From positions 1 through 41,331 of the IMG/VR virus record IMGVR_UViG_3300031803_000003: a DNA stretch of 41,331 nt; one strand, written 5' to 3'. The position numbers and the translations under genes were made by a program. A model generated the notes under the pieces. It made no database searches, had not been told where the DNA came from, and worked only from the letters and a program-made list of their open reading frames with translations. Positions 1,486 to 28,599 of this stretch are shown here, piece by piece (within the stretch, counting starts at the first letter, position 1; every line of letters begins with the position of its first letter). This stretch comes from a virus.

Positions 1486-2994
1486 TTATACATCTTCCTC
1501 AGGTTCTTCTTCGCCTTCGGCTGGAGCTTCGCTACTAATTTGCTTATCAATCATTTCAATATCTTCGTGAGACTGTCGAAGAATATTCTTTCGGAGCCAC
1601 TCTTTCGAGAAATACTCACCCTTGAATTCTTCCATATCCCGAAGTAGTTCAACTCGACTTCGGAGTATTTCAGTTTCTTGAAGTTCAATAAAATGTGTAT
1701 CCTTCTGCCAATCGAAATAGATATTAGGCCTAAAATCTTCCCAATCTTCTGCTGTTACTACACCCTTCAATCGAAGCTGTGTCTCCAAAAGACTCAAGAA
1801 TAGTTGACCAAACCTACTTCGCAGTCGAGTAACAAATTTTCCAAACTTGACCTCGTCTCGCGTGATTTCAGCAGAACGACCAATATTAAACCCACCCTCT
1901 TGTTCCAGTCTAGATGCAGGAACATTCATGGCCTTATAGAGCTTCCTTCTGAAATACACAATATCTTCAATTTCACCGAGATTCTGCCCACCAGGAAGTG
2001 TTGTGATTTCAGTACCACGCCCGCCTTCGCGTCGAGGTAACCAATAATCCTCTAGCATGGTTCGATGTTCTCGCTCGTCACTAATTTCGCCTGTGCCTGA
2101 ATTATATACAAGACGATTCTTAAATTTAGTCATGATGTCGCGCAAGTATTGTTCGGCTTTGATCTTGGGAAGATTTCCTACATCAACATAGAAAATTCTT
2201 CGTTCAGGTGCGCGAGCAATACGATAAATGACAACAGCATCTTCTAGCATCTTTAGTTGGTTGTAAGGTTTGATGGCCTTGTGGAGATGAGAAATAATCA
2301 TCGCTTTTCTGGCGTCTAACAAACCACAATGCGTATAGCAAACACTATCCTTGGCAATTTTAATTCCGTTACCGCCGCCCTTTTGGTCTAGCCCTCGTTC
2401 ATTATAAATGAAATATTCTGCTCCGTTTGTTGTCACAGGAATATTCTGACCATCTCCAGACTTTATGCCAACTTTCTTAATGTGCTTTACTTTGCGTATT
2501 TTTCGGGGGTCAATATAACGAAGCTCTTGAATGCCTTTCTTGGGATTATCGACATCAATAATGATATGATAATACAATCGCCCATCTACATACCATCTCC
2601 GGAATGTGTCATAGCATTGATTTCCAAAATCAAGAAGGGTTAAGATTTCAATAAATTCGTTTTGAATTTTTGTTTTGATCGAAGAAGATTGTTCCAAATG
2701 GTCCAGGACAATATCAACTGGACCCCTTCCAACGCTAGTGACAATTGCCTCATTGACAATATCATCAACAGCATATTCAGCCTCAGGATACATTACCATT
2801 TCACGATACCGAGTGATTAACTCAGCTTCATTTTTAACGGCACCCTCAATATCAAGATAGGTGCCATACGCTCCCGCAAGCGGGGAGATTTGTAAGGCAC
2901 CCTCTAGGTTTTCTTTTTCAGCGAATGATTGAATTTTGGCGGGATTTTCTTCATCTTCCCGACCAATAGTAAAACCGAATAGTTTAACAGCCAT
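1486..2994 (-). CDS. 20: Portal vertex protein gp20
   Basis: A 502-aa protein (T4 gp20 is 524 aa) that forms the dodecameric ring through which DNA enters and leaves the head; it nucleates prohead assembly and docks the terminase. The N-terminal third carries the typical T4-like portal pattern YREMVMYPEAEYAVDDIVNEAIV (residues about 64-86), followed by YYHIIIDVDNPKKGIQELRYIDPRKIRK (about 142-170) and IYRIARAPERRIFYVDVGNLPK in the crown/stem region. The last 12 residues are acidic. The start uses an AGGA site about 10 bases upstream. Its own late promoter lies at 3067-3074, followed by a strong leader hairpin. Order tube, portal, core, protease is canonical. Confidence 0.95.
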   Translation of the reverse strand: MAVKLFGFTIGREDEENPAKIQSFAEKENLEGALQISPLAGAYGTYLDIEGAVKNEAELITRYREMVMYPEAEYAVDDIVNEAIVTSVGRGPVDIVLDHLEQSSSIKTKIQNEFIEILTLLDFGNQCYDTFRRWYVDGRLYYHIIIDVDNPKKGIQELRYIDPRKIRKVKHIKKVGIKSGDGQNIPVTTNGAEYFIYNERGLDQKGGGNGIKIAKDSVCYTHCGLLDARKAMIISHLHKAIKPYNQLKMLEDAVVIYRIARAPERRIFYVDVGNLPKIKAEQYLRDIMTKFKNRLVYNSGTGEISDEREHRTMLEDYWLPRREGGRGTEITTLPGGQNLGEIEDIVYFRRKLYKAMNVPASRLEQEGGFNIGRSAEITRDEVKFGKFVTRLRSRFGQLFLSLLETQLRLKGVVTAEDWEDFRPNIYFDWQKDTHFIELQETEILRSRVELLRDMEEFKGEYFSKEWLRKNILRQSHEDIEMIDKQISSEAPAEGEEEPEEDV

Positions 2995-3030
2995 AGTCTA
3001 GAATCCTATATTTACGAAGTAAAGGTAAGT

Positions 3031-3060
3031 GGTGTGGATAGACATGTTTCTACCCACACC
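3031..3060 (-). promoter_or_regulatory. Strong leader hairpin between late promoter and gp20
   Basis: An 11-bp stem (GGTGTGGGTAG pairing with CTATCCACACC, one G-T pair) with an 8-base loop. On the minus strand it begins 7 bases after the TATAAATA box, so it would sit at or very near the 5' end of the gp20 transcript. There is no T tract after it, which argues against a simple intrinsic terminator. It could instead protect the 5' end of the mRNA or mark the 3' end of readthrough gp19 mRNA. Confidence 0.6.
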
Positions 3061-3066
3061 TCAACC

Positions 3067-3074
3067 CTATTTAT
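3067..3074 (-). promoter_or_regulatory. T4-type late promoter for gp20
   Basis: Minus-strand TATAAATA in the gap between the gp19 stop and the gp20 start, 73 bases upstream of the gp20 ATG. Confidence 0.75.
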
Positions 3075-3082
3075 ATATTCAC

Positions 3083-3622
3083 TTAGGACGTAATTCCGGG
3101 AGTCTGCCAGAAATCATACTGCCATGTACATGTAAATTCTTCAAGTGCATCATTTGTTTCCCAAGCCAGATCAATTGGGGCAAGAACCGAAGGCCACATG
3201 TTTACAATAGTTACTCTCTTAATCTCTTCGCCAGCCTTTCCATAATGAATAACATCTGCTGTGGAATGATAGTTAATTGGATTACCTCCTGCTTCACGAA
3301 TATTCCCTGAATGAGAATTTATAGAATTCATCCAAGTCTGAATTGCGTTGTATACAGAAAAATCCTCATCATTAATAACTGTCGTAGTCCACTCTGGGAA
3401 GGTTCGATTGCCTGCAAGTTTGATTGTTCTACCAAAATATGGCATTTCAACCATCCCAAGATCCGAACCAGGCATCTGGGCCCCCTTACAGGTAAAGGTC
3501 ATCTTGGTCCCGGCCGCTCCTGGATTGGCAACTGAGGGGAATGGCATCACCACTTCAAACAGATTGGGGCGAGCCCCTCCGCCTGTCAATTGCGCCCTAA
3601 TATCGTTTACGTTAAAAGGCAT
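3083..3622 (-). CDS. 19: Tail tube protein gp19
   Basis: A 179-aa protein, close to the 163 aa of T4 gp19, which stacks as hexameric rings to form the inner tail tube through which DNA passes. The N-terminus MPFNVNDIRAQLTGGGARPNLFEVVMPFP is the typical marine T4-like tube start, and the C-terminal half contains the expected beta-rich core and a terminal TCTWQYDFW-type strand. It sits immediately downstream of the sheath gene, as in T4. An AAGGAG ribosome site precedes the ATG, and a TATAAATA box lies 38 bases upstream at 3660-3667. No oddities seen. Confidence 0.93.
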   Translation of the reverse strand: MPFNVNDIRAQLTGGGARPNLFEVVMPFPSVANPGAAGTKMTFTCKGAQMPGSDLGMVEMPYFGRTIKLAGNRTFPEWTTTVINDEDFSVYNAIQTWMNSINSHSGNIREAGGNPINYHSTADVIHYGKAGEEIKRVTIVNMWPSVLAPIDLAWETNDALEEFTCTWQYDFWQTPGITS

Positions 3623-3659
3623 TTAAGTCTCTCCTTGTTTAATCTTTCTTTCTAAAGAC

Positions 3660-3667
3660 TATTTATA
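3660..3667 (-). promoter_or_regulatory. T4-type late promoter for gp19
   Basis: Minus-strand TATAAATA just before the sheath stop codon (3668), 38 bases upstream of the tube start. A separate promoter for tube protein fits its high copy requirement. Confidence 0.7.
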
Positions 3668-5845
3668 CTAGAACTTCCCAACAACCTCTTCAAAGTCAAC
3701 ACCCGTGCGGACTGCAACGAAGTTTAATTGAATGAAGTTAATTGAGCGAGCAGGCTTGATGTAAATATCACCAATAAACTCGTTTCGATCAATAACTTCG
3801 CCTGTGTTGTTCGATTCGTCACAGACAACCTTGAAATCAAAGATGCCCCTTCGCCCTTGCACATCGCGGAGGAAAGGTTCTACCATATTCACGAATTGTG
3901 AACGAGTAAATTCATCATTGAACTCAAAGAGTGTGAACTTGGCTGCTGTTGCAATGGCCTTTTCTAGTACAATAAAGAGTCTTCGTACATTAATTCGGTC
4001 AAATGCGCTAGGTTTAGCCTGGAGCGTCTTATCACCGAACAGGACAGTACCTTGCCCAGGAATAGTAACAACAGGATTGATACCATTTTTGTAAAGCTCA
4101 TCGCGATGCGCCTTCTGAGGATTCCATGCGAGTCGGACAACATTCTTGATGTGCCCACGATTGAATCCCGCTGGTGACCACCATGGGTCACGAGACTCGT
4201 CTGTTCGGACACAAAGCCCTGCAATGTCACCATTCAGAGGCACCCAGCGATATTTGTCGTTGAACTTATCATACTGATACTTCCAACCACTATCCATGAA
4301 GCCATATGAACTACTCAGGCTGTTAATACCCTCGCTGCCTGGATTATTTAGGCGATAATCCTTGACAGCGGTTGTCTTTTGTGAAAGCGTATCCGAAGCA
4401 TTAGTAACATCAGTCTTGCGTGGCGAAATGAATGCAACACAATCTTTGCGGGCTTCGGCAATAGATTCAACGATGTACTTGGAAACAGTACCATCATGAG
4501 CACCACCAAGAATCATTGAAATGTCTATTTCTTCTGGATCTGAAAACATATCATATCCAAGTATGAATGCTGCTGGAGTAGTTGCATAGCCATTGTTGCC
4601 GCTGTGTAGTGTTATGCTATCTGGCATCCAAAGATGCTGATCATCAGGCGAGGACGCGCCTCGTGAGTCTGCGCCTTCGATAAACTCAAAAGATTCGACA
4701 GTATCTCCTATGACGCCAGCGACATATGCAGTATTTCCCCATTCGCGAGAAACTACACCAGCAGATTCGGTCGTAGCATCGGCTAGTGTTGAGTTGGGTG
4801 GGTTGCACCATCGAATATACTTGGAGTTTTGATTAATAACTTCTCCATAATAATTGGAGCTTCCGTCCTCAGCCTTTGCATCCCGAGCCTTTGATACATT
4901 AGGATAAGTTTCAAGAACTTGCCCTTTAGTGCCCGAAATCAAACCAGTTGCATCAGAGACAGCAATGTGAATTTCGTCATTGGCCGAGCCCCGTGCTGCT
5001 GAATATACCGAGGTGCCCGGAGCTTGGTCAAAGTTACCATAGAACTCCCACTTTCGGTTGATTCCGACATTGATTGCATCTGACGGAACGGCTTTATTCA
5101 ATTTTGCTGAAACATTATTTTTTACATTATCAGGACCAGTTCCCTCGGGGAATGAAACAATCTTAAAAGTTCCTGATGGTGGTGAGTAGACTGTGAAGTC
5201 CGCACCATCACCGGTGTTTTTAACAACAGCTAGTGTTTCAGCAATATCGGCGTCGGTAGCAGCTCTAAACGAAATAACATCACCAATATGGAAGTTAGTA
5301 TTACCATGAAGTTGAATAGTAGTTGAACCGTCGGTTGTGTTTGCAGTATCATTACAAACAATATTACTAAACTGCCCTGGATGGGAATCACAAATAGAGA
5401 CACGAATGTTATTTCCTAGGTCTCCAGGAAAACGAGCCGCCCATAGGCCAGCGTCGGTTACCGTAAGCGATCCTTCAAGGATTCCGACGCCGGTGGCTTG
5501 GTCTGCGAAATCTGCATCATTCCTGATGAGAACTCCACTCAGCGATGCAGCGGTATCGCGCTTTGAAATAGCATTATTTGCCAACCCAGTAGTTACACGA
5601 ACCGTATGCAGCTTGTTTCCATAGTCCAGGAAGTTTGATGCCGTAAACCAATGTTCGGACGTATCGCCATCCGGCTTACCAAAAGTGCTAACCAACACTT
5701 CTTGATTGTTGACTAAGGTGATTTCGTCCACAGGACCCCAACTGAATGAACCAACAAATGCTGTGTCTGTAGTAGCTACAGCAGGAATAATTGTGGTCAG
5801 ATCAATTTCTGAAACATTTACACCCGGTGATAGTTGAAAAGGCAT
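3668..5845 (-). CDS. 18: Contractile tail sheath protein gp18
   Basis: A 725-aa protein (T4 gp18 is 659 aa) that forms the contractile sheath around the tail tube. The N-terminus MPFQLSPGVNVSEIDLTTIIP is the conserved sheath start, followed by FVGSFSWGPVDEITLVNNQEVLVSTFG. The middle (about residues 110-400) is the variable, surface-exposed region expected to carry protrusion domains. The C-terminal 130 residues contain the conserved inner domain: ALFEFN-type segment, FVNMVEPFLRDVQGRRGI, then IYIKPARSINFIQLNFVAVRTGVDF that forms the mesh with neighbouring subunits. It has its own late promoter (5920-5927) and an AGGAG ribosome site. Confidence 0.96.
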   Translation of the reverse strand: MPFQLSPGVNVSEIDLTTIIPAVATTDTAFVGSFSWGPVDEITLVNNQEVLVSTFGKPDGDTSEHWFTASNFLDYGNKLHTVRVTTGLANNAISKRDTAASLSGVLIRNDADFADQATGVGILEGSLTVTDAGLWAARFPGDLGNNIRVSICDSHPGQFSNIVCNDTANTTDGSTTIQLHGNTNFHIGDVISFRAATDADIAETLAVVKNTGDGADFTVYSPPSGTFKIVSFPEGTGPDNVKNNVSAKLNKAVPSDAINVGINRKWEFYGNFDQAPGTSVYSAARGSANDEIHIAVSDATGLISGTKGQVLETYPNVSKARDAKAEDGSSNYYGEVINQNSKYIRWCNPPNSTLADATTESAGVVSREWGNTAYVAGVIGDTVESFEFIEGADSRGASSPDDQHLWMPDSITLHSGNNGYATTPAAFILGYDMFSDPEEIDISMILGGAHDGTVSKYIVESIAEARKDCVAFISPRKTDVTNASDTLSQKTTAVKDYRLNNPGSEGINSLSSSYGFMDSGWKYQYDKFNDKYRWVPLNGDIAGLCVRTDESRDPWWSPAGFNRGHIKNVVRLAWNPQKAHRDELYKNGINPVVTIPGQGTVLFGDKTLQAKPSAFDRINVRRLFIVLEKAIATAAKFTLFEFNDEFTRSQFVNMVEPFLRDVQGRRGIFDFKVVCDESNNTGEVIDRNEFIGDIYIKPARSINFIQLNFVAVRTGVDFEEVVGKF

Positions 5846-5939: not shown

Positions 5940-7154
5940 TTAATGAAATTTAGGATCTGGAGTAGAATCTTTCTCAAAATCATTTCCCCATAACCACTTA
6001 TCGTCACCACGGTCTACGGCCACTTCTTCGATCACAGGGCCCGAGTCAATAAACCCAAAGGGCAACAATTCTTCTTCTTCGACCTTTGATTTGTCAGCCA
6101 AAATGCGTTTTCTGGCATCCACACTAGTCAGGTCTTTGAAATAGGGTTGAGTTGTGAGCCAACAAAATAAAACGAGTGTCATCACCAAGTCGTCATTATG
6201 CCCAGGCTCAGCCTCATAAGAATATCCACGAGAAACAAATGAAGTCAGTTCGGCAATGGTGTCAAAGTCTTCGATAATTAATTTATCACTTTCGACAAGG
6301 TTCTTGAGATTGAGACATCCTACTTGCTTTACTTTCTTGGTTGTCTTGATTCCCATTTGAGCCTGCCCTATACCAAAACCACCACCAAGAACTTGCCCTG
6401 CGCGCCCCCGTTGTGTGACCATTAGCATGTTGTCATATTCTAGGTCATAATGCAAAATGTCAGCCACTTGCTGCCCAATGTCATTGATTTCGACAAGAAT
6501 AAATGCTTCATTGTATTTCAGAGCAGCATTATGGATAACTGTGGGATAGGTTAATGGGGGAATTGTTGCATTGCGATACTTGGCCACCTGTTTATATGGA
6601 AATTCTGACGAATCAATGATCGAAAACGCAGAATAGTCCAGCCCTTCACCGTGTGATACATCGACAACTAGTGTATAAACATGCCCTTCTTGGGGTTCTT
6701 CATAGATGTCCATGTCTCCCAAAACTATAACCGGGTCTTTGAATGGCATATTCTTTAGCTTCGTTGCGTTAATCAGAGTATTAATTGAGCCGACAAAATC
6801 ACAATTATGGGAAAGAACGCCATTGGTGTAATATGTATGATCCTTTCCTGCATTAACGGCATCATACAATTCAATGAGGCCATCTACAATCTCGGCATAT
6901 ACGATTTCTATGAATCCGGATTTGGCCTGGACCTTATCTCCAACCTTTAGGTCCATCGCCAAGATAATATCCGAATTGACATCGAATAGGGGATGTCTAG
7001 GAGAACACTTCAACTCCACTCCATCCGATCCAATCAGATGCACACACCAGTCACGTTCGATCTTGTTTACTGCATAGAAATGCTCAAATCCGTTCGGAGT
7101 TTCTATTTTATGATTTGGTGTGTTCTGTATTATGGTCTTAGGAAGTCTAGGCAT
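5940..7154 (-). CDS. 17: C-intein fused to terminase large subunit C-terminal half (gp17-C, nuclease domain)
   Basis: A 404-aa protein. Residues 1-117 are a C-terminal split-intein fragment ending in GVLSHN; residue 118 is Cys (+1), where the terminase resumes with CDFVGS. Residues 118-404 are the gp17 RNase H-like headful nuclease domain: D165 and D173 in DVSHGEGLDYSAF and D321/D322 in GHNDDLVMTLVLFCW correspond to the metal-binding Asp positions of T4 gp17. After trans-splicing with residues 1-266 of the upstream gene, a 553-aa terminase results, near normal family length (T4: 610). The ATG at 7154 lies inside the end of the endonuclease gene (25-base overlap, different frame), with only a weak AGAG site, so translation may be coupled. 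Translated alone it lacks the ATPase domain, so splicing should be needed for function. Confidence 0.93.
   Translation of the reverse strand: MPRLPKTIIQNTPNHKIETPNGFEHFYAVNKIERDWCVHLIGSDGVELKCSPRHPLFDVNSDIILAMDLKVGDKVQAKSGFIEIVYAEIVDGLIELYDAVNAGKDHTYYTNGVLSHNCDFVGSINTLINATKLKNMPFKDPVIVLGDMDIYEEPQEGHVYTLVVDVSHGEGLDYSAFSIIDSSEFPYKQVAKYRNATIPPLTYPTVIHNAALKYNEAFILVEINDIGQQVADILHYDLEYDNMLMVTQRGRAGQVLGGGFGIGQAQMGIKTTKKVKQVGCLNLKNLVESDKLIIEDFDTIAELTSFVSRGYSYEAEPGHNDDLVMTLVLFCWLTTQPYFKDLTSVDARKRILADKSKVEEEELLPFGFIDSGPVIEEVAVDRGDDKWLWGNDFEKDSTPDPKFH
6804..7154 (-). other. C-terminal split intein fragment (IntC, 117 aa)
   Basis: Unusually long IntC carrying block B (ELKCSPRHPLF around residues 47-57, with Ser at the position of the usual TxxH Thr), a block containing AMDLKVGDKV (66-75), and blocks F/G (LIELYDAV, HTYYTNGVLSHN). 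The penultimate His116, terminal Asn117 and +1 Cys118 are the standard splicing residues. The N-terminal pattern (IETPNGF...NKIER) resembles the C-fragment of the AceL-TerL intein as I remember it. The fragment contains two Cys (37 and 50). Confidence 0.9.
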
Positions 7155-8104
7155 TTTTGAATCTCTTTTTGTGGGTCTTTAATGTAATCCTGCTCGTTTA
7201 TTCGGAGTGTCATATATCCCTTGCTCTCTAAAATAGCATCCCGGACTTCGTCCTTTGCTGTTCTACCCAATATAGAATGCCAATATGTGCCATCAAATTC
7301 AATATTTCTGGTACCCAACACAAAGTCCAAATAGTAGCAATGTTTGTTTGTTTGTTCTGGTCCGAACATTTTTATATCATTTTTGTTGACCCGGACACGA
7401 ACCTCCGAATTTAAATCACCAAAGCGAGCCAAAGGTCTATATTCCCCCTCTAGGCTGTTGTAAATTTCCCAAAATAATTCTTGTGAAATTTTCGACGACC
7501 CAAGAAATACACTACTCATGTTTTGAGCATATCCCTTTCGAGTTATTTGATGTGTACTGTTGCCATACCCCTTAGTGACCGTATAAAATTTTAATGCTTG
7601 ACCCGTTTCTAGGCATTTTGGCAAATCCCCTTCACAAAAATCATTAATGATTCTATATATTCGTTCCGTCAGTTTATCGGATTGTAGAATATGCGTTGAG
7701 GTGTGGTGTATAATACTTGCGCGTAAATTTGGATCACCCCACGTTATACCAGGAACAATTCCGTGGTTATATTCATCAACGAATACCGCACATTTATCTT
7801 TGGTTGTTTGGGCGTCATATATTACTTCAGGAATTTCCATTCCCTGGTATTTGATCCGGCTGGTGATTGTGTTTGTTTTCACAGAGAAACATTTCGCAAT
7901 CTCAAATGGCGATTTTCCTTCGGACAGCATGTCCTTTAAGCCGGTATTATCAATACCTTTGAAATAATTGGAAACTAGGCCGTGCTCCTTTAACCACCTA
8001 CGAACTATTTTACGCCCAACACCATATTTCTTAGCAATCCGAACCTGGCTAGTGCCACTCAATTCAAACTGAAGTTCCGCCTTTGTTCCTGGATAGCTCG
8101 TCAT
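7130..8104 (-). CDS. Free-standing Vsr-like (EDxHD) homing endonuclease inside the fractured terminase gene
   Basis: A 324-aa protein encoded between the two terminase halves. The N-terminal part has two helix-turn-helix-like segments, about residues 17-41 (TSQVRIAKKYGVGRKIVRRW) and 60-87 (GKSPFEIAKCFSVKTNTITSRI), expected for site-specific DNA binding. The C-terminal domain (about 205-320) shows the EDxHD nuclease pattern of Vsr-type homing enzymes: Glu209/213 in SQELFWEIYN, Asp260 in YYLDFVL, EFDGTYWH with His276, Asp289 in KDEVRDA, and a closing LRI strand. Such enzymes cut alleles lacking the insert and drive its spread. The start overlaps the N-intein end by 41 bases; AGGAG (8111-8115) supports it. 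A late promoter and hairpin lie just upstream within N-intein coding sequence. It lacks intein splicing motifs and is not fused to either half. Confidence 0.88.
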   Translation of the reverse strand: MTSYPGTKAELQFELSGTSQVRIAKKYGVGRKIVRRWLKEHGLVSNYFKGIDNTGLKDMLSEGKSPFEIAKCFSVKTNTITSRIKYQGMEIPEVIYDAQTTKDKCAVFVDEYNHGIVPGITWGDPNLRASIIHHTSTHILQSDKLTERIYRIINDFCEGDLPKCLETGQALKFYTVTKGYGNSTHQITRKGYAQNMSSVFLGSSKISQELFWEIYNSLEGEYRPLARFGDLNSEVRVRVNKNDIKMFGPEQTNKHCYYLDFVLGTRNIEFDGTYWHSILGRTAKDEVRDAILESKGYMTLRINEQDYIKDPQKEIQKCLDFLRP

Positions 8105-8975
8105 ATAATTCTCCTATAGCAATTTCCTGGGGACCATGTCCCTTGTCTATATTTATAATAGTTGATGCGCTAACCGATTCAAATTCCTGCGCGAATTGTT
8201 CCTTGCTCGTATTTCTGATTGTCTCTTCTTTCCACTGTTCGTCACGCCCCGGAACTTCACTCCAATGAACCTCGACAGGTTTGTATAGATTCTTTTTTTC
8301 TTGTGCATCCGACCACAATTTATAGAAGTGGTTCATTCCGCAAGGGGTACTGACGATAATGACTTTTGTAGTTTTACCGGAAGAAATTGTTGGATAGACA
8401 GAACTAAAGAATTCGTCTGCAATATTCTTAGGAACAAACGCAAACTCGTCAAGCAGAATCATGTTGTATGTTCCACCACGAACTGCACTAGAAGAAGTCG
8501 ATGCTGCAACAATTTTTGACCCATTCTCTAATTGCATGTCCCCACGATTCCATACCTTGATTCCTTGCTGTAGAAATGGGGGGAGATTCTCATAGGCCAA
8601 CTGTAGTCTGCCTAGAATATCACGGGCCAATGACCCCTTGTTTGCAAGGATGGCAATATTGACATCTTCGTTGAATAGAATATAGTGTAGAAAATAAGAA
8701 ACAACAGTCGTGGTCTTGCCTGACTGTCTCGGAAGTTTGGCAATGGCAAAGCGATTGTTATGAATCGTGTTTATAATTTTCTCTTGAAAGTCATACATGG
8801 TAAAGGGAACAAGCCCTTCATCTACATTGACAATTTTTACATAGTTGAGAATAAAATAAACAGGATCTTTAGAACACTTGATGTATTCTGAAATCTGGTC
8901 TTTTGTGAACTCTTCGTGTGTTCCGGCCTTCTTGAGAAGGGGATTCCCAAGATAGCCTGATTGTTGAGTAGCCAT
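8064..8975 (-). CDS. 17: Terminase large subunit N-terminal half (gp17-N, ATPase domain) fused to N-intein
   Basis: A 303-aa protein. Residues 1-266 are the packaging-motor ATPase of gp17: Walker A at 81-89 (LPRQSGKTT, Arg/Gln variant as in T4), Walker B at 172-177 (MILLDE), and coupling motif around 206-211 (IIVSTP). The sequence reads up to KEQFAQEFE, which continues directly into CDFVGS of the downstream gene if the intein is removed. Residues 267-303 are the N-intein fragment, beginning with Ser267. In T4 the same region runs unbroken into the nuclease domain. An AAGGAG site precedes the ATG; the gene lies 6 bases after gp16. The last 12 residues overlap the endonuclease start in another frame. 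Confidence 0.94.
   Translation of the reverse strand: MATQQSGYLGNPLLKKAGTHEEFTKDQISEYIKCSKDPVYFILNYVKIVNVDEGLVPFTMYDFQEKIINTIHNNRFAIAKLPRQSGKTTTVVSYFLHYILFNEDVNIAILANKGSLARDILGRLQLAYENLPPFLQQGIKVWNRGDMQLENGSKIVAASTSSSAVRGGTYNMILLDEFAFVPKNIADEFFSSVYPTISSGKTTKVIIVSTPCGMNHFYKLWSDAQEKKNLYKPVEVHWSEVPGRDEQWKEETIRNTSKEQFAQEFESVSASTIINIDKGHGPQEIAIGELYDELSRNKGGTSV
8111..8115 (-). promoter_or_regulatory. Strong Shine-Dalgarno of the homing endonuclease
   Basis: AGGAG six bases before the ATG at 8104, lying inside the N-intein coding frame. It decides the endonuclease start. Confidence 0.7.
8130..8142 (-). promoter_or_regulatory. Hairpin in the endonuclease leader
   Basis: Perfect 5-bp GC-rich stem GGGAC/GTCCC around a three-base loop, 8 bases after the embedded TATAAATA box and 26 bases before the endonuclease ATG. 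It lies in N-intein codons, so the sequence carries a protein and a possible RNA structure. Confidence 0.5.
8150..8157 (-). promoter_or_regulatory. T4-type late promoter embedded in N-intein coding sequence
   Basis: TATAAATA formed by the Ile-Ile-Asn-Ile codons (intein residues 7-10), 46 bases upstream of the endonuclease ATG. It would give the endonuclease, and possibly the C-half, its own late transcript. Confidence 0.65.
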
Positions 8976-12505: not shown

Positions 12506-12513
12506 TATTTATA
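12506..12513 (-). promoter_or_regulatory. T4-type late promoter for the neck gene cluster
   Basis: Minus-strand TATAAATA 28 bases before the ATG of the 134-aa virion gene. The leader can form a weak 5-bp GATAT/ATATC stem enclosing the AAGG site. Confidence 0.75.
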
Positions 12514-17500: not shown

Positions 17501-19030
17501 AAGGGCTCCTTTGATTCTCAAATGATGTACATTGGCATGGGAGGCCGAGGTTAAAGCAAGGTTATCGTTGAGCGTTGTGGCACCATCTACGGTAAGGGCA
17601 CCACCTAAATCCACAAGCCCCGTGCCTACGGTAAGGGTACCGGAGCCTTGAAGCAAGAGGTCTTTGTTAGAGGCTATGGTAACATCCTCGTTGAGCGTGG
17701 TGGCACCATCTACGGTAAGGGCACCACCTAAATCCACAAGCCCCGTGCCTACGGTAAGGGTACCGGAGCCTTGAAGCAAGAGGTCTTTGTTAGAGGCTAT
17801 GGTAACATCCTCGTTGAGCGTGGTGGCACCATCTACGGTAAGGGCACCACCTAAGTCTGTAAGACCAGTGCCTACGGTAAGGGTACCGGTGCCTGAAAGC
17901 GAGAGGTCTTTGTTAGAGGCTATGGTAACATCATCACGAAGCGTTGTGGTTCCGGTTACGTCAAGGGCCCCGCCAAGCGTTGTGGCTCCAGTTACGTCAA
18001 GGGCCCCGCCAAGCGTTGTGGCTCCAGTGCCTACGGTAAGGGTACCGGAGCCTTGAAGAAGAAGGTCTTTATCACTCGCTATGGTAACATCCTCGCTGAG
18101 CGTTGTGACTCCAGTTACGCCAAGGGTACCACCAATCAATGAAGCTCCTGAGGTTCGGAATGTTCCGACTACATCCAATGTTTTCCCTGGGCCGATTGTC
18201 CCAATACCAACCTGCCCAGAGGAGCCTTCTACAAATAATGCAGCGGTGCTGTTATTTCGATAAATCGCCGTATCTACATCAGTATCCGCCGCGCCGAGGA
18301 TAAGTATATCTTGGGTGTCGTCTTCGTGCATCTTAATAAATTGTCGGCCCCCGGCAGCGAAGGTGATCTCGTCCTGATGAAATAATATATAAGTATTATC
18401 GTCATCATTATGATATAGGTAATCTGTACCGCCTCCATCACCAAGTCCAATATTCCCAACAACATCTAATTTATAAGTTGGAGCATTAGTTCCAATGCCA
18501 AGGCGGCCGGCTCGGGTAAAGGTGAATCTGTCTGTTTCTGTTCCACTAATAAATTGTCTAATATCTAATTTAGCACCTTCATCATCATAACCAATTACCA
18601 TTCCATCAGTAGAATTTTCAAGAAAACGAACCGCTGAATTGCCGGTGCCTTGCAAATTTAAATTAGCCGTACCACCGGGGAAGGTGCTAACAACATTTAT
18701 ACTAGCGGATCTATCAGATTTTAGAATATAGAATTGTGTCTCCTCTCCGACAGAAGTTGGAAAACCACTTGATAAGAAATCACCAATACCAAGCCCTCGA
18801 TTGCCATTGGCTGGGTCTGGATTAATAATGAAAAGGCTACCATTGTCTCCTTGGAGAATCTCTTCTCCAACCTCACCACCGTCAATCGTACCACCGCGCC
18901 GGTCAAGGGGATCTCTCTTCACCGCTGGAAGCCCATTGACAATTTTAATCAATACATTGGTCTTATTTGCAAATTGAGTAAATGTATCGCTCATAACAAC
19001 ATTGGCGACTTGGGTAGTATTAACTGGCAT
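14579..19030 (-). CDS. Long tail fibre protein with tandem beta repeats
   Basis: A 1483-aa fibre. The N-terminus VANVVMSDTFTQFANKTNVLI resembles the SDTF-x-x-W-x-x-x-TN attachment motif of marine phage fibres. The shaft holds several GIGTxxPxxxLDVxG modules and, at about residues 300-490, tandem copies of a 41-residue unit (TLNEDVTIASNKDLLLQGSG, TLTVGTGLVDLGGALTVDGA) plus shorter 12-residue GALDVTGATTLG units. This is a trimeric beta-helical shaft design. The C-terminal 200 residues are non-repetitive and Trp/Gly-rich (HLFWTWSIVGDRIHSG, RWPRIPTKFHTNGAQIVRAYDWKLIMRAWK split over the end), the likely receptor-binding tip. No S74 chaperone/peptidase signature was seen. The start uses AAGGA and overlaps the 94-aa gene by 11 bases. 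Confidence 0.88.
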   Translation of the reverse strand: MPVNTTQVANVVMSDTFTQFANKTNVLIKIVNGLPAVKRDPLDRRGGTIDGGEVGEEILQGDNGSLFIINPDPANGNRGLGIGDFLSSGFPTSVGEETQFYILKSDRSASINVVSTFPGGTANLNLQGTGNSAVRFLENSTDGMVIGYDDEGAKLDIRQFISGTETDRFTFTRAGRLGIGTNAPTYKLDVVGNIGLGDGGGTDYLYHNDDDNTYILFHQDEITFAAGGRQFIKMHEDDTQDILILGAADTDVDTAIYRNNSTAALFVEGSSGQVGIGTIGPGKTLDVVGTFRTSGASLIGGTLGVTGVTTLSEDVTIASDKDLLLQGSGTLTVGTGATTLGGALDVTGATTLGGALDVTGTTTLRDDVTIASNKDLSLSGTGTLTVGTGLTDLGGALTVDGATTLNEDVTIASNKDLLLQGSGTLTVGTGLVDLGGALTVDGATTLNEDVTIASNKDLLLQGSGTLTVGTGLVDLGGALTVDGATTLNDNLALTSASHANVHHLRIKGALSDAEGTYGSTGALNQVLSSTGGATPTVKWKSLAELGGSGTVGGSSAAGVLARWTGTDTIEGSIIQETAGGLIGIGGVDNGFKLKVHGTFNATSLATLSNGLTVSAGATTLTNGTLSVPSALTTLSSLKLTGTLEDSADSTGTDDYVLTRVASGVEWKPTLSAFSGSAGVLPIFGSGGMTIEDSVIKQVSTSIGINEELPDQMLHVTGTNPQIILWESDTEFVRLGVENTAGDMVLGWDDADDMQFGVFTSPTDADVTSHMTIEAGGDVGIGTTNPGKKLDVVGTFRASGASLFSSTLGITGVTSITDGTAAGTLDPFSLTGALRVTGGSSIKENSQFGGDLRIHGDAIIANEPWSVVAARDTGALLNMKGGGSGAYGALGATAGDTANVWQSGTATSSRDTLVHKLERTYTHASWDSAIHKIQRLVDDTWMGYIGFGHNGFVGSGNNITFGEGSTEYMVIDGDGDVGIGISTPLQKLHIEKSGSTQIAIAHNDNRFLRLGVGEISESSVIGWDNADELRLGTYVTSSTTTLTTHMNITPAGKVFVGRDSGGLPESIGSGANPVIAGIKMIVDGNSQIGAIADIHETGSFVVGNPPALSTHFSKNVIQVQQAYAVEDLYLNWRGGNVIIGAGGTTSGGLHVSGADGLRANKGATFGSLSAPVRKVDIVGAVSGAILRLESNAPTLEFYENDPGAGDGVFYWRLGADGGHFVVDRAPDTLVGDPVTGTYTSARRPFSISGEQGNTSFNTGPGIVATSSKVSVNGAISLSEQASSQVSATSHGGAGQIWVKNTNPTELMFTDDTAVDHNLLSSSGLTSSAANYFEEDKIWNPANEILVNGVFWGHNYTWGESAAHGFNATPRLLRCTFKALAAGTGQQQGAAYWTDYSEGDEISCDALTVGFWGAEGPGYSSGFTVGANTTHLFWTWSIVGDRIHSGTPIDAFETPRWPRIPTKFHTNGAQIVRAYDWKLIMRAWK
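17566..18048 (-). repeat. 123-bp tandem repeats in the fibre shaft, with 36-bp sub-repeats
   Basis: Units start at 17566, 17689, 17812 and 17935 (period 123 bp, 41 codons). The first two are nearly identical at the nucleotide level; the third and fourth diverge. The fourth contains 36-bp units starting at 17941, 17977 and 18013 (12 codons). Confidence 0.9.
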
Positions 19031-19304
19031 CCGTATTGTTTTCCTTAGTTCCTGATATAATCTGCTTTAGCAAATTTTTTATTTCACCCATCTCTTCTTT
19101 GAGAATATCCATCTCTTCTTTAACTGTATTTATACTCTCTATCTTGGCTTGATTTGCTTTTATCTTCCGGGCTCGAATACGATATTCTTGAAGTGCCTTA
19201 TGATCTGACGAAATAATTGCCTTAGAATATGTATCTCTGACTAATCCCGCTTTATCGGTTGGCACATACTTCTTCTTTTCGTCGTCGTTGTTATTACTAT
19301 TCAT
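19020..19304 (-). CDS. Small coiled-coil protein upstream of the tail fibre
   Basis: A 94-aa charged protein with no family I recognise. Residues 1-20 are Asn/Asp/Lys-rich; residues 35-85 form a predicted continuous helix with heptad-like Ile/Leu spacing (AKIESINTVKEEMDILKEEMGEIKNLLKQI), fitting a coiled coil. It ends in a polar tail. It lies between the giant DUF4815-type gene (8 bases downstream of its stop) and the fibre, with 11 bases overlapping the fibre start, so it is translated with the fibre. A role as fibre-assembly chaperone or trimerising adaptor is plausible from position only. Its ribosome site is weak. A TATAAATA late promoter box is embedded at 19127-19134. Confidence 0.6.
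   Translation of the reverse strand: MNSNNNDDEKKKYVPTDKAGLVRDTYSKAIISSDHKALQEYRIRARKIKANQAKIESINTVKEEMDILKEEMGEIKNLLKQIISGTKENNTDAS
19127..19134 (-). promoter_or_regulatory. Possible internal late promoter for the tail fibre
   Basis: Minus-strand TATAAATA within the 94-aa gene, about 97 bases upstream of the fibre ATG. Exact consensus, but in coding sequence, so function is unproven. The following bases include a repeated AAAGAAGAGATGG. Confidence 0.5.
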
Positions 19305-26535: not shown

Positions 26536-28542
26536 TTAAAACTCAATAACAATTTTAATATCTTCGGCCTGGTCTTCTGAACGAGTGATTGGAGTCCTAT
26601 GTTCTATATACAAAATATCTCCGGTATAGGGCTGAAGGTCTGGTTCATAGATGACCTGTGAGTTCTCGTCGAAGGCTAAATTTCCTCCCCCAAGCGGCAA
26701 ATGTTCTGGAGGCTCACGCGAATCGGCCCATCCATTTGCGGTTACATATTTCTCACCGTCGGTATATGTTTCGCCATCTTTATTTTTCACTAATCCTATT
26801 TGTTCATTAAACATAAATGTTCCGCCAGAGCTATTTGCCGTGATATTTGTTATGTTTATTCGGCCGGACGCGGAGGAGGATGTATTATACTCAATAATTC
26901 TTCCAGTGGCCCCAGAAGTACGACCTTTAATATCGTCATCTTCGGCAGGAATATAATTGCCAAATTTGCCGAAGTCAGTATTTGCAGTAATCCAAGTAGA
27001 TTGGTGCAGCGGGCTTGAATTTGCATACCAATTCTTACCACCTGTTGCAGGAGCTAATTCGGTTGCATCATAACCGTCTTTCAAGTATGGATTTCTCACT
27101 AGCCCTACAGTTCGATATTGATTTGATATAGGGAAGTTGCGGTCTACTCCTGTAACAGTATTAAGAATACCTGGTCCTGTCAATGTTTTAGCAATAACAA
27201 CATTAAATGCTCCTAATTCTGTGCCGGGGTCAGACCCGTGGCCACCAGGAGGTGCAATTATTGCCCTAGCCTGTAGACCTATGCCTGTAGGAGATACTCC
27301 ATGTGATCCTATAACTGATACAGTAGCAGTCGTATAATTATTTCCTGATGTCCATGCATTTATTTGGTTAATTTCACCACTCTGAGTGCAAATTGCATAG
27401 GCATTAGCCCCACCAGAACCATCTGTATTTCGGAGGCCATCACCAGTTACTTCAATGATCGGGCCAATTTCATATTTAACACCAGGTTCTCCATCCTCAA
27501 CAAAATATTCAGGAGCAAGCCCTGGGTCCAATAATACAGCCCTTTGTTGACCAGTAACATTAAAGGGCGAGGTGTCGTAGTCTAATGTCCCAGATGCTAC
27601 AATCCAACCAACACCCTTTTGATGTGTATTATTTGAGACAAAAATAGCAGAACCCTTATAGTCATCTTGACCTATTAATAAACCATCAGCAGGAGCTAAT
27701 GAAAAGAAATCGGTGGTAGATACGGGGGTACCCAGGCCACCGGAGGTAAGTGTTTGCCCCGTAGTTTGGACAATTCTATTTTCAAGAGCAACTCCTCCAG
27801 AATGTTTTGTAAATCCTGATCCACCACTGGATATAAAATAGGTTTCAATTGTTCCAGTATTTGCATTCTTTTGAACAAATGCTTGGTCGGCAAACCCGCC
27901 AGGAGGATTAGTAAGCTGTGTTCCTATGCCTCCCCCCTCACCAGACCCGGGAATTGCATTCAGCGTGAGAATTGGAATATAATTTGTAGTCAACCATTTC
28001 ACATATTGATCGGTAGAAACAGTACACATATATTTCCAACGATATCCATCTGATGTTACGAAAGGTAAATGTTTTGCAACATCTGAATATCCCTCCTTAG
28101 GATTTACTGTGGATATGGCCGCTTCATTATTATCAAGGCATTTAAAGACTCGATTTGAAGTTGTCTCGTATACATAATACTTAGAAGTAGCTTTCGTGAT
28201 TTGAGGGTCTTGGTCGTCATATTGGTCATATATCTCCCCCGAAGTCCAATCATATCGTTTTGCGGCAAATGATATATCTGTATTGGCAATCACCCTATCT
28301 AGCGCGATCATGTCTCGCCAAGGTATGAATTCATTTCCTTGGACATCACCATCAGGAGGTGGAGCCAGTGAATCACTATAACCAGCATGGGTTTTATCCC
28401 ACGATAAAATCTTTCCTATAAACAAGTAGACATAAGATTGCCCGACAACAGTATCACGCCCACCATTTTCCGGTTCTTCAAAAGAATCGACAAAGGCTTT
28501 TGCGTTGACTATTCTGAAATTTGATGTCACAAGTGCTGGCAT
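26536..28542 (-). CDS. 8: Baseplate wedge subunit gp8
   Basis: A 668-aa protein, twice the 334 aa of T4 gp8. The first 190 residues match the gp8 pattern: LVTSNFRIVNAKAFVDSFEE, VYLFIGKILSWD, RDMIALDRV, YDQYDDQDPQ, YYVYETTSNRVFKCLDNN, SDGYRWKYMCTVSTDQYVKWLT. The remainder is enlarged by beta-rich inserts (GGSGFTKHSGG near 240; GYDATELAPATGG near 500) and ends DILYIEHRTPITRSEDQAEDIKIVIEF, the expected gp8 finish. gp8 dimers brace the wedge with gp7 and gp10. A GGAG ribosome site and a variant late promoter (28592-28599) precede it. Confidence 0.9.
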   Translation of the reverse strand: MPALVTSNFRIVNAKAFVDSFEEPENGGRDTVVGQSYVYLFIGKILSWDKTHAGYSDSLAPPPDGDVQGNEFIPWRDMIALDRVIANTDISFAAKRYDWTSGEIYDQYDDQDPQITKATSKYYVYETTSNRVFKCLDNNEAAISTVNPKEGYSDVAKHLPFVTSDGYRWKYMCTVSTDQYVKWLTTNYIPILTLNAIPGSGEGGGIGTQLTNPPGGFADQAFVQKNANTGTIETYFISSGGSGFTKHSGGVALENRIVQTTGQTLTSGGLGTPVSTTDFFSLAPADGLLIGQDDYKGSAIFVSNNTHQKGVGWIVASGTLDYDTSPFNVTGQQRAVLLDPGLAPEYFVEDGEPGVKYEIGPIIEVTGDGLRNTDGSGGANAYAICTQSGEINQINAWTSGNNYTTATVSVIGSHGVSPTGIGLQARAIIAPPGGHGSDPGTELGAFNVVIAKTLTGPGILNTVTGVDRNFPISNQYRTVGLVRNPYLKDGYDATELAPATGGKNWYANSSPLHQSTWITANTDFGKFGNYIPAEDDDIKGRTSGATGRIIEYNTSSSASGRINITNITANSSGGTFMFNEQIGLVKNKDGETYTDGEKYVTANGWADSREPPEHLPLGGGNLAFDENSQVIYEPDLQPYTGDILYIEHRTPITRSEDQAEDIKIVIEF

Positions 28543-28591: not shown

Positions 28592-28599
28592 TATTTATG
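28592..28599 (-). promoter_or_regulatory. Variant late promoter (CATAAATA) for gp8
   Basis: One mismatch to TATAAATA, in the 84-base gap between the gp7-like stop and the gp8 start. Spacing to the following hairpin is like that of the exact promoters. Confidence 0.5.

What the first reader, a model, noticed from the sequence alone, without database searches (positions are those of the whole stretch)
8104..8157. Late promoter, hairpin and ribosome site for the endonuclease overlaid on N-intein codons
Intein residues 7-10 (Ile-Ile-Asn-Ile) spell an exact TATAAATA late box, followed after 7 bases by a GGGAC/GTCCC hairpin and then AGGAG six bases before the endonuclease ATG. The same bases encode the conserved intein block A region. 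The reported fractured-gene loci sometimes carry control elements brought with the endonuclease; here they are physically inside the intein. Late-only expression of a homing enzyme parallels T4 I-TevI.
Basis: partly seen in the sequence, partly recalled or inferred. Interest (0 to 1): 0.78.

Follow-up and report, generated by a model that had tools for sequence, protein, structure and literature searches.

The report
Nuclease gene's promoter inside intein codons
In a T4-like virus of bacteria, the start signal for a selfish DNA-cutting gene is written into the protein-coding letters of the split intein that it interrupts; the same trick recurs in dozens of related viruses far more often than the proteins alone would require, so it is probably a real promoter.

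Summary
The late-box reading holds up. All 8 TATAAATA of the window lie on the coding strand, 29-104 nt before a gene start. I collected EDxHD homing-endonuclease relatives without reference to the box. In 68 non-redundant loci with coding sequence upstream of the endonuclease, TATAAATA occurs in 24 against 3.8 expected under synonymous recoding. This survives clustering of the IntN segments at 60% and 50% identity and is weaker at 40%. Of 27 loci whose amino acids readily permit the box, 23 have it; three of the four misses are GATAAATA or AATAAATA. The box sits at different intein residues in different families, and is not enriched before the C-terminal-half ORF (3 of 82, 2.0 expected). The hairpin is not supported: it folds no better than shuffles and does not change ribosome-site accessibility, so the I-TevI parallel covers the promoter only. 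"Late-only" expression is untested. Near relatives at the same site (L001, L215, L216, L225) lack the exact box. New variant of a known kind.

The parts
8064..8975 (-). N-terminal half of terminase large subunit (gp17-like) plus 37-residue IntN (8177-8067)
   Evidence: Pfam Terminase_6N E 2.7e-26; intein-less relatives L002-L005 read QFAQEFE|CDFVGS across the site
8150..8157 (-). TATAAATA late-promoter box in IntN codons 7-10 (Ile-Ile-Asn-Ile)
   Evidence: family-wide enrichment beyond protein constraint
8143..8145 (-). predicted late transcript start (inferred from the usual T4 late box-to-start spacing, from memory)
   Evidence: inference only, no transcript data
8130..8142 (-). GGGAC-ATG-GTCCC hairpin near the 5' end of the predicted late transcript; function not supported
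8111..8115 (-). AGGAG ribosome-binding site, encoded by the intein motif I-G-E (ATA GGA GAA)
   Evidence: the motif directly precedes the endonuclease ATG in 25 of 68 coding loci
7130..8104 (-). EDxHD (Vsr-like) homing endonuclease gene, 324 aa; its ATG lies in TAT-GAC (Tyr-Asp) of the intein motif IGELYD
   Evidence: Pfam MTES_1575 and DUF559 weak matches; profile match to I-Bth0305I 3r3p E 4.8e-7; top fold match 3r3p
5940..7154 (-). IntC (7154-6807, 116 aa, ends HN|C) plus C-terminal nuclease half of terminase
   Evidence: Pfam Terminase_6C E 2.3e-8; IntC profile matches atypically split intein CatC 6dsl E 2.9e-28, gp41-1 and VidaL

Best explanation
TATAAATA in IntN codons 7-10 is a working T4-type late promoter for the homing-endonuclease gene that splits the terminase intein. 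The phage late sigma factor and RNA polymerase would start a transcript near 8144; ribosomes would use the AGGAG and ATG that the intein motif I-G-E-L-Y-D happens to spell, and make the endonuclease. The same RNA continues into the IntC-terminase half, which has no box of its own. So the endonuclease's promoter, ribosome site and start codon are overprinted on IntN, and selection keeps the promoter letters at synonymous positions. Shown: the sequence, the use of the box before other genes of this phage and of its relatives, and conservation beyond protein constraint, specific to the endonuclease's 5' end. Inferred: sigma use, start site, timing and translation.
For: Window: 8 boxes, all coding strand, all 29-104 nt before gene starts; one box in long ORFs against 0.72 expected. 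Family: relatives chosen by endonuclease alone (Va1 by tblastn); 92 non-redundant loci; 68 with coding sequence upstream; TATAAATA in 24 against 3.83 under synonymous recoding, P about 6e-20, and the highest z of all 56 rearrangements of the same letters. One locus per IntN cluster: median P 4e-10 at 60% identity, 5e-8 at 50%, 3e-4 at 40%. In the Walker-A-site class the Ile of the box is ATA in 15/15 while upstream Ile codons are ATA in 30/119; Asn is AAT in 17/17; neighbouring codons vary. In the terminase C-site class residue 7 is I, Y or L but its codon ends in T in every boxed locus. Placements differ: residues 7-10, 3-6, further downstream (L084/L086), L326, L364, and the non-coding IntN-HE gap (L082, L218, L294, L317). 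In box-bearing loci the box is 15 times denser before other genes than elsewhere (1.75 against 0.11 per kb). C-half ORFs show no enrichment: 3/82 against 2.0. Isolates Vibrio phage Va1 and Providencia phage PSTRCR_127 (GIY-YIG enzyme) carry it at -50 and -47.
Against: No transcript data. The nearest intein relative L001 has TCTAAATA and a GIY-YIG enzyme; L215 and L216, close endonuclease relatives at the same site, lack the box, and L225 has GATAAATA. Isolates TG1, PspYZU05 and PX29 have separate endonuclease ORFs without it. Loci share ancestry, so raw P values are overstated; at 35% clustering there is no power left. The late sigma gene was not looked for; the contig covers only 41 kb.
Confidence: 0.8

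Rival explanations
1. The box is a codon accident: AT-rich codons for Ile-Ile-Asn-Ile happen to spell TATAAATA and nothing uses it.
Against: Family-wide 24 observed against 3.8 expected, different residue placements, invariant ATA and AAT codons, no enrichment before the C-half ORF.
Confidence: 0.1
2. It is a real promoter, but its main duty is the downstream IntC-terminase half, an essential late gene left far from its promoter by the insertion; the endonuclease rides along.
For: No other box lies between 8157 and 5927 in the window, so the transcript would cover the C half. In Va1 and L267 the endonuclease is fused in frame to IntC-terminase, so the two cannot be separated there.
Against: C-half ORFs have no box of their own (3/82 against 2.0 expected) while boxes track the endonuclease start; the gene run already has an upstream box at 12513. 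Not exclusive with the best explanation.
Confidence: 0.3
3. Full I-TevI-type control: the late promoter plus the hairpin keep the endonuclease silent on earlier read-through RNA.
For: The hairpin is really there, just after the predicted start. T4 precedent: I-TevI, I-TevII, I-TevIII, segB and mobE combine late promoters with ribosome-site hairpins (PMC2988022).
Against: The hairpin does not cover AGGAG; accessibility is 0.53 late and 0.54 read-through; z about 0; not seen in relatives. It looks more like the non-sequestering seg43 hairpin described in PMC2988022.
Confidence: 0.08
4. The conserved letters are an operator or binding site for the endonuclease itself, as in I-TevI autorepression, rather than or as well as a promoter.
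For: I-TevI binds an operator overlapping its late promoter (PMC2988022).
Against: The same word lies before other late genes of these phages and before an unrelated GIY-YIG enzyme in PSTRCR_127. No homing-site similarity was tested.
Confidence: 0.07

Closest known systems
[quoted passage not shown]
   Same: Homing endonuclease nested in a self-splicing element in a T4-type phage, with its own middle or late promoter just upstream inside the element
   Different: Host element is an intein, so promoter letters are also protein-coding; no ribosome-site-sequestering hairpin; different nuclease family (EDxHD)
Fractured genes: split intein halves separated by a free-standing endonuclease (Dassa et al. 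2009, known to me from memory and from its citation in PMC3229294; full text not held)
   Same: Same architecture: extein-IntN / endonuclease / IntC-extein, with a Vsr-like endonuclease family
   Different: Overprinting of the endonuclease promoter on IntN codons and its conservation are what is added here; I could not check whether that paper mentions promoters
I-Bth0305I, EDxHD homing endonuclease
   Same: Catalytic domain: profile E 4.8e-7 and top fold match
   Different: I-Bth0305I is deposited as a mobile intron protein; here the gene sits in a split intein
Atypically split inteins (CatC consensus, VidaL) and gp41-1
   Same: IntC profile match E 2.9e-28 to CatC, weaker to gp41-1 and VidaL; short IntN (37 aa) and long IntC (116 aa)
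   Different: Here with the endonuclease between the halves; splicing activity not tested
mobE of phage Aeh1 (PMC2988022)
   Same: Endonuclease in a T4-like phage with a late promoter
   Different: mobE is regulated by a ribosome-site hairpin; not found here

Membership tests
T4-type late promoter | TATAAATA (NATAAATA in cyanophages, PMC2984593) | tested here: met
   exact match
T4-type late promoter | lies a short distance upstream of late genes on the coding strand and is used repeatedly in the genome | tested here: met
   8 of 8 within 29-104 nt of gene starts, 0 on the other strand; 15-fold upstream enrichment in box-bearing relatives
T4-type late promoter | drives transcription with gp55-type sigma and sliding clamp | not testable with these tools
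   no RNA data; the contig covers only 41 kb
EDxHD (Vsr-like) homing endonuclease | conserved E, D, H, D catalytic residues | tested here: met
   E41, D67, H83 and D92 of the catalytic segment invariant in alignment A3; D67, E76, H83 invariant and D92 at 90% or more in A5
EDxHD (Vsr-like) homing endonuclease | catalytic-domain fold of I-Bth0305I | tested here: met
   3r3p E 4.8e-7 by profile; Foldseek top hit 3r3p probability 1.00, E 2.5e-3, TM 0.49/0.62, model pLDDT 82.7
Fractured gene with split intein | IntN and IntC on separate ORFs with an endonuclease ORF between | tested here: met
Fractured gene with split intein | intein-less alleles at the same site | tested here: met
   L002-L005 QFAQEFE|CDFVGS
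Fractured gene with split intein | trans-splicing activity | not testable with these tools
   Ser1, terminal HN and Cys+1 present in the sequence; no assay
I-TevI-type late switch | hairpin sequesters the ribosome site on read-through RNA but not on late RNA | tested here: not met
   accessibility 0.53 late against 0.54 read-through; fold z about 0

The most novel reading that the evidence does not exclude
Across T4-like phages, homing endonucleases of split inteins have their whole 5' control region (late promoter, ribosome site, start codon) overprinted on IntN; the conserved intein motif I-G-E/D-L/F-Y-D/E pre-supplies the ribosome site and ATG, and the promoter has been placed in IntN codons several times, so that intein and endonuclease are locked together at the DNA level.
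Probability: 0.5. Interest if true: 0.75.

Novelty: new variant of a known kind. Interest (0 to 1): 0.62.

Why it matters
Promoters for intron-encoded endonucleases in T4 lie inside the intron. Here the promoter is written in protein-coding intein letters, so it can be tested by synonymous changes, and it ties expression of a selfish nuclease to the catalytic end of an intein. It suggests how such nucleases can invade inteins: the IGELYD motif already offers a ribosome site and an ATG, and a late box needs few changes. It also warns that codon changes in such phage genes can remove a promoter, and it offers a criterion for finding separately expressed endonucleases in split genes.

Tried and rejected
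Hairpin as a regulatory element: rejected on energy, accessibility and absence in relatives. Box serving the C-half ORF directly: no enrichment before that ORF, though co-transcription remains open. An IntC profile search of viral contigs failed because the six-member alignment A1 was too divergent. A pattern scan (TATAAATA plus GARYTNTATGA) was too loose, mostly chance hits, biased by design, and was not used as evidence. Dassa 2009 could not be read. The first synonymous test left out loci whose IntN shares the endonuclease frame (L084, L086); corrected. Loci with cut or short endonuclease N-termini were excluded.

Full report
What is there. The window is an IMG/VR virus record of 41,331 bases, with T4-like structural genes on the minus strand. 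The terminase large subunit gene is split: TerL-N plus IntN (8064-8975), an endonuclease gene (7130-8104) and IntC plus TerL-C (5940-7154). Intein-less relatives at 89-95% TerL identity read straight through the site, QFAQEFE|CDFVGS. The IntC profile matches the atypically split consensus intein CatC (E 2.9e-28), gp41-1 and VidaL. The endonuclease matches I-Bth0305I, a representative of the EDxHD family, by profile (3r3p, E 4.8e-7) and as the top fold hit of a model with pLDDT 82.7.

The observation. TATAAATA lies at 8157-8150, in the codons ATT ATA AAT ATA of intein residues 7-10; GGGAC/GTCCC at 8142-8130; AGGAG at 8115-8111; ATG at 8104. All eight TATAAATA of the window are on the coding strand and 29-104 nt before a gene start; none is on the other strand. 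Recoding the 15 long ORFs synonymously predicts 0.72 boxes in all of them; the one observed is this one. NATAAATA is the published cyanophage late motif and TATAAATA that of T4 and KVP40 (PMC2984593).

The comparative test. I collected relatives by the endonuclease alone, so the set was not chosen for the box: six by the window protein, 80 by alignment A3, 80 by alignment A4, plus Vibrio phage Va1, found by tblastn. After removal of truncated genes and near-identical upstream sequences, 92 loci remained. In 68 of them an ORF, as a rule the IntN one, covers the region upstream of the endonuclease. Each was recoded 2000 times with the codon usage of its own upstream ORF. TATAAATA was observed in 24 and expected in 3.83 (P about 6e-20); among all 56 rearrangements of the same letters it has the highest z, 11.5, the next being partly overlapping words. 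Shared ancestry inflates that P. With one locus per IntN cluster the median P is 4e-10 at 60% identity, 5e-8 at 50% and 3e-4 at 40%; at 35% single linkage leaves only nine clusters and no power.

What the codons show. Where the amino acids readily permit the box, 23 of 27 loci have it; of the four misses, L225 and L359 read GATAAATA, L370 reads AATAAATA, and L272 has none. In the 18 loci of the Walker-A insertion class, the Ile of the box is ATA in 15 of 15, though upstream Ile codons are ATA in 30 of 119, and Asn is AAT in 17 of 17, while several nearby invariant residues use mixed codons. In the terminase C-site class residue 7 varies (Ile, Tyr, Leu) but its codon ends in T in every boxed locus. 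The box is at different residues in different families and in the non-coding gap in others. It therefore follows the endonuclease start, at -35 to -95 nt, rather than one intein residue.

Controls. In box-bearing loci TATAAATA is 15 times denser before other genes than elsewhere. The C-half ORF downstream of the endonuclease has a box in 3 of 82 loci against 2.0 expected. Among terminase inteins checked whose endonuclease is fused in frame or absent, five loci have no TATAAATA on that strand at all (L088, L091, L375, L377, L378) and kaaroe (L089) has one far from IntN; some of these belong to phage groups that may use other late motifs, so this control is weak. PSTRCR_127 has a box at -47 before an unrelated GIY-YIG endonuclease. 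Counter-examples exist: TG1, PspYZU05, PX29 and L001 have separate or nested endonuclease ORFs without the exact box.

Ribosome site and start codon. The intein motif I-G-E-L-Y-D spells the endonuclease's AGGAG and ATG (TAT GAC). In 25 of the 68 coding loci the endonuclease ATG directly follows the equivalent IG(E/D)(L/F) codons.

The hairpin. It is present but folds no better than shuffles (z -0.18, -0.86, +0.05), I did not see it in relatives, and the ribosome site is as open in read-through RNA as in the predicted late RNA (0.54 against 0.53); across 14 loci there is no consistent difference. The I-TevI mechanism, in which a hairpin blocks translation of earlier transcripts (PMC2988022), is therefore not supported. 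The terminase run itself begins with a late box at 12513, so 'late-only' may be a property of the whole run.

Verdict. The most likely reading is a functional late promoter for the endonuclease, overprinted on IntN, with the C half co-transcribed. That step rests on conservation and context, not on RNA. The architecture (fractured gene, EDxHD enzyme) and the idea of endonucleases with their own late promoter are known; the overprinting on intein codons, recurring in many loci, is the new part as far as I could find. Searches of the held papers turned up no report of it by title and abstract, but Dassa et al. 2009 could not be read, so this is a statement about the held library only.

Noticed in passing
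L001:2928-3530 (IMGVR_UViG_3300023216_000229): A GIY-YIG endonuclease gene lies wholly out of frame inside an uninterrupted TerL-intein ORF (2069-4717, 882 aa). The terminase frame has no stop over 199 codons; recoding the endonuclease gives 8.6 stops on average and none in 5e-5 of trials. It looks dual-coding, with a cis intein.
   Followed up: partly
L081, L083, L223, L236, L237, L240, L241, L250, L252, L256 and others, within 60 nt before the endonuclease ATG: In 20 fractured-intein loci [AT]TATTTAT precedes the endonuclease; ATATTTAT is 17 times denser 8-45 nt before other ORFs in these phages (2.62 against 0.15 per kb). Possibly another phage promoter type.
   Followed up: partly
L087:2772-5057 (Vibrio phage Va1) and L267:5437-7506: The endonuclease is fused in frame to IntC-terminase, so one ORF carries nuclease, IntC and the C half.
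   Followed up: no
L092:3498-4826 (Campylobacter phage CP81): An IntC-terminase half stands alone after a head-tail adaptor gene; no N half was seen in the 7.3 kb fetched, so the two halves may lie apart in the genome.
   Followed up: no
window 19127-19134 (-): A second in-gene TATAAATA, inside a 94-aa ORF and 104 nt before the large gene starting at 19030.
   Followed up: no
window 28592-28599 (-): CATAAATA 57 nt before the gene starting at 28542, fitting the NATAAATA cyanophage form.
   Followed up: no
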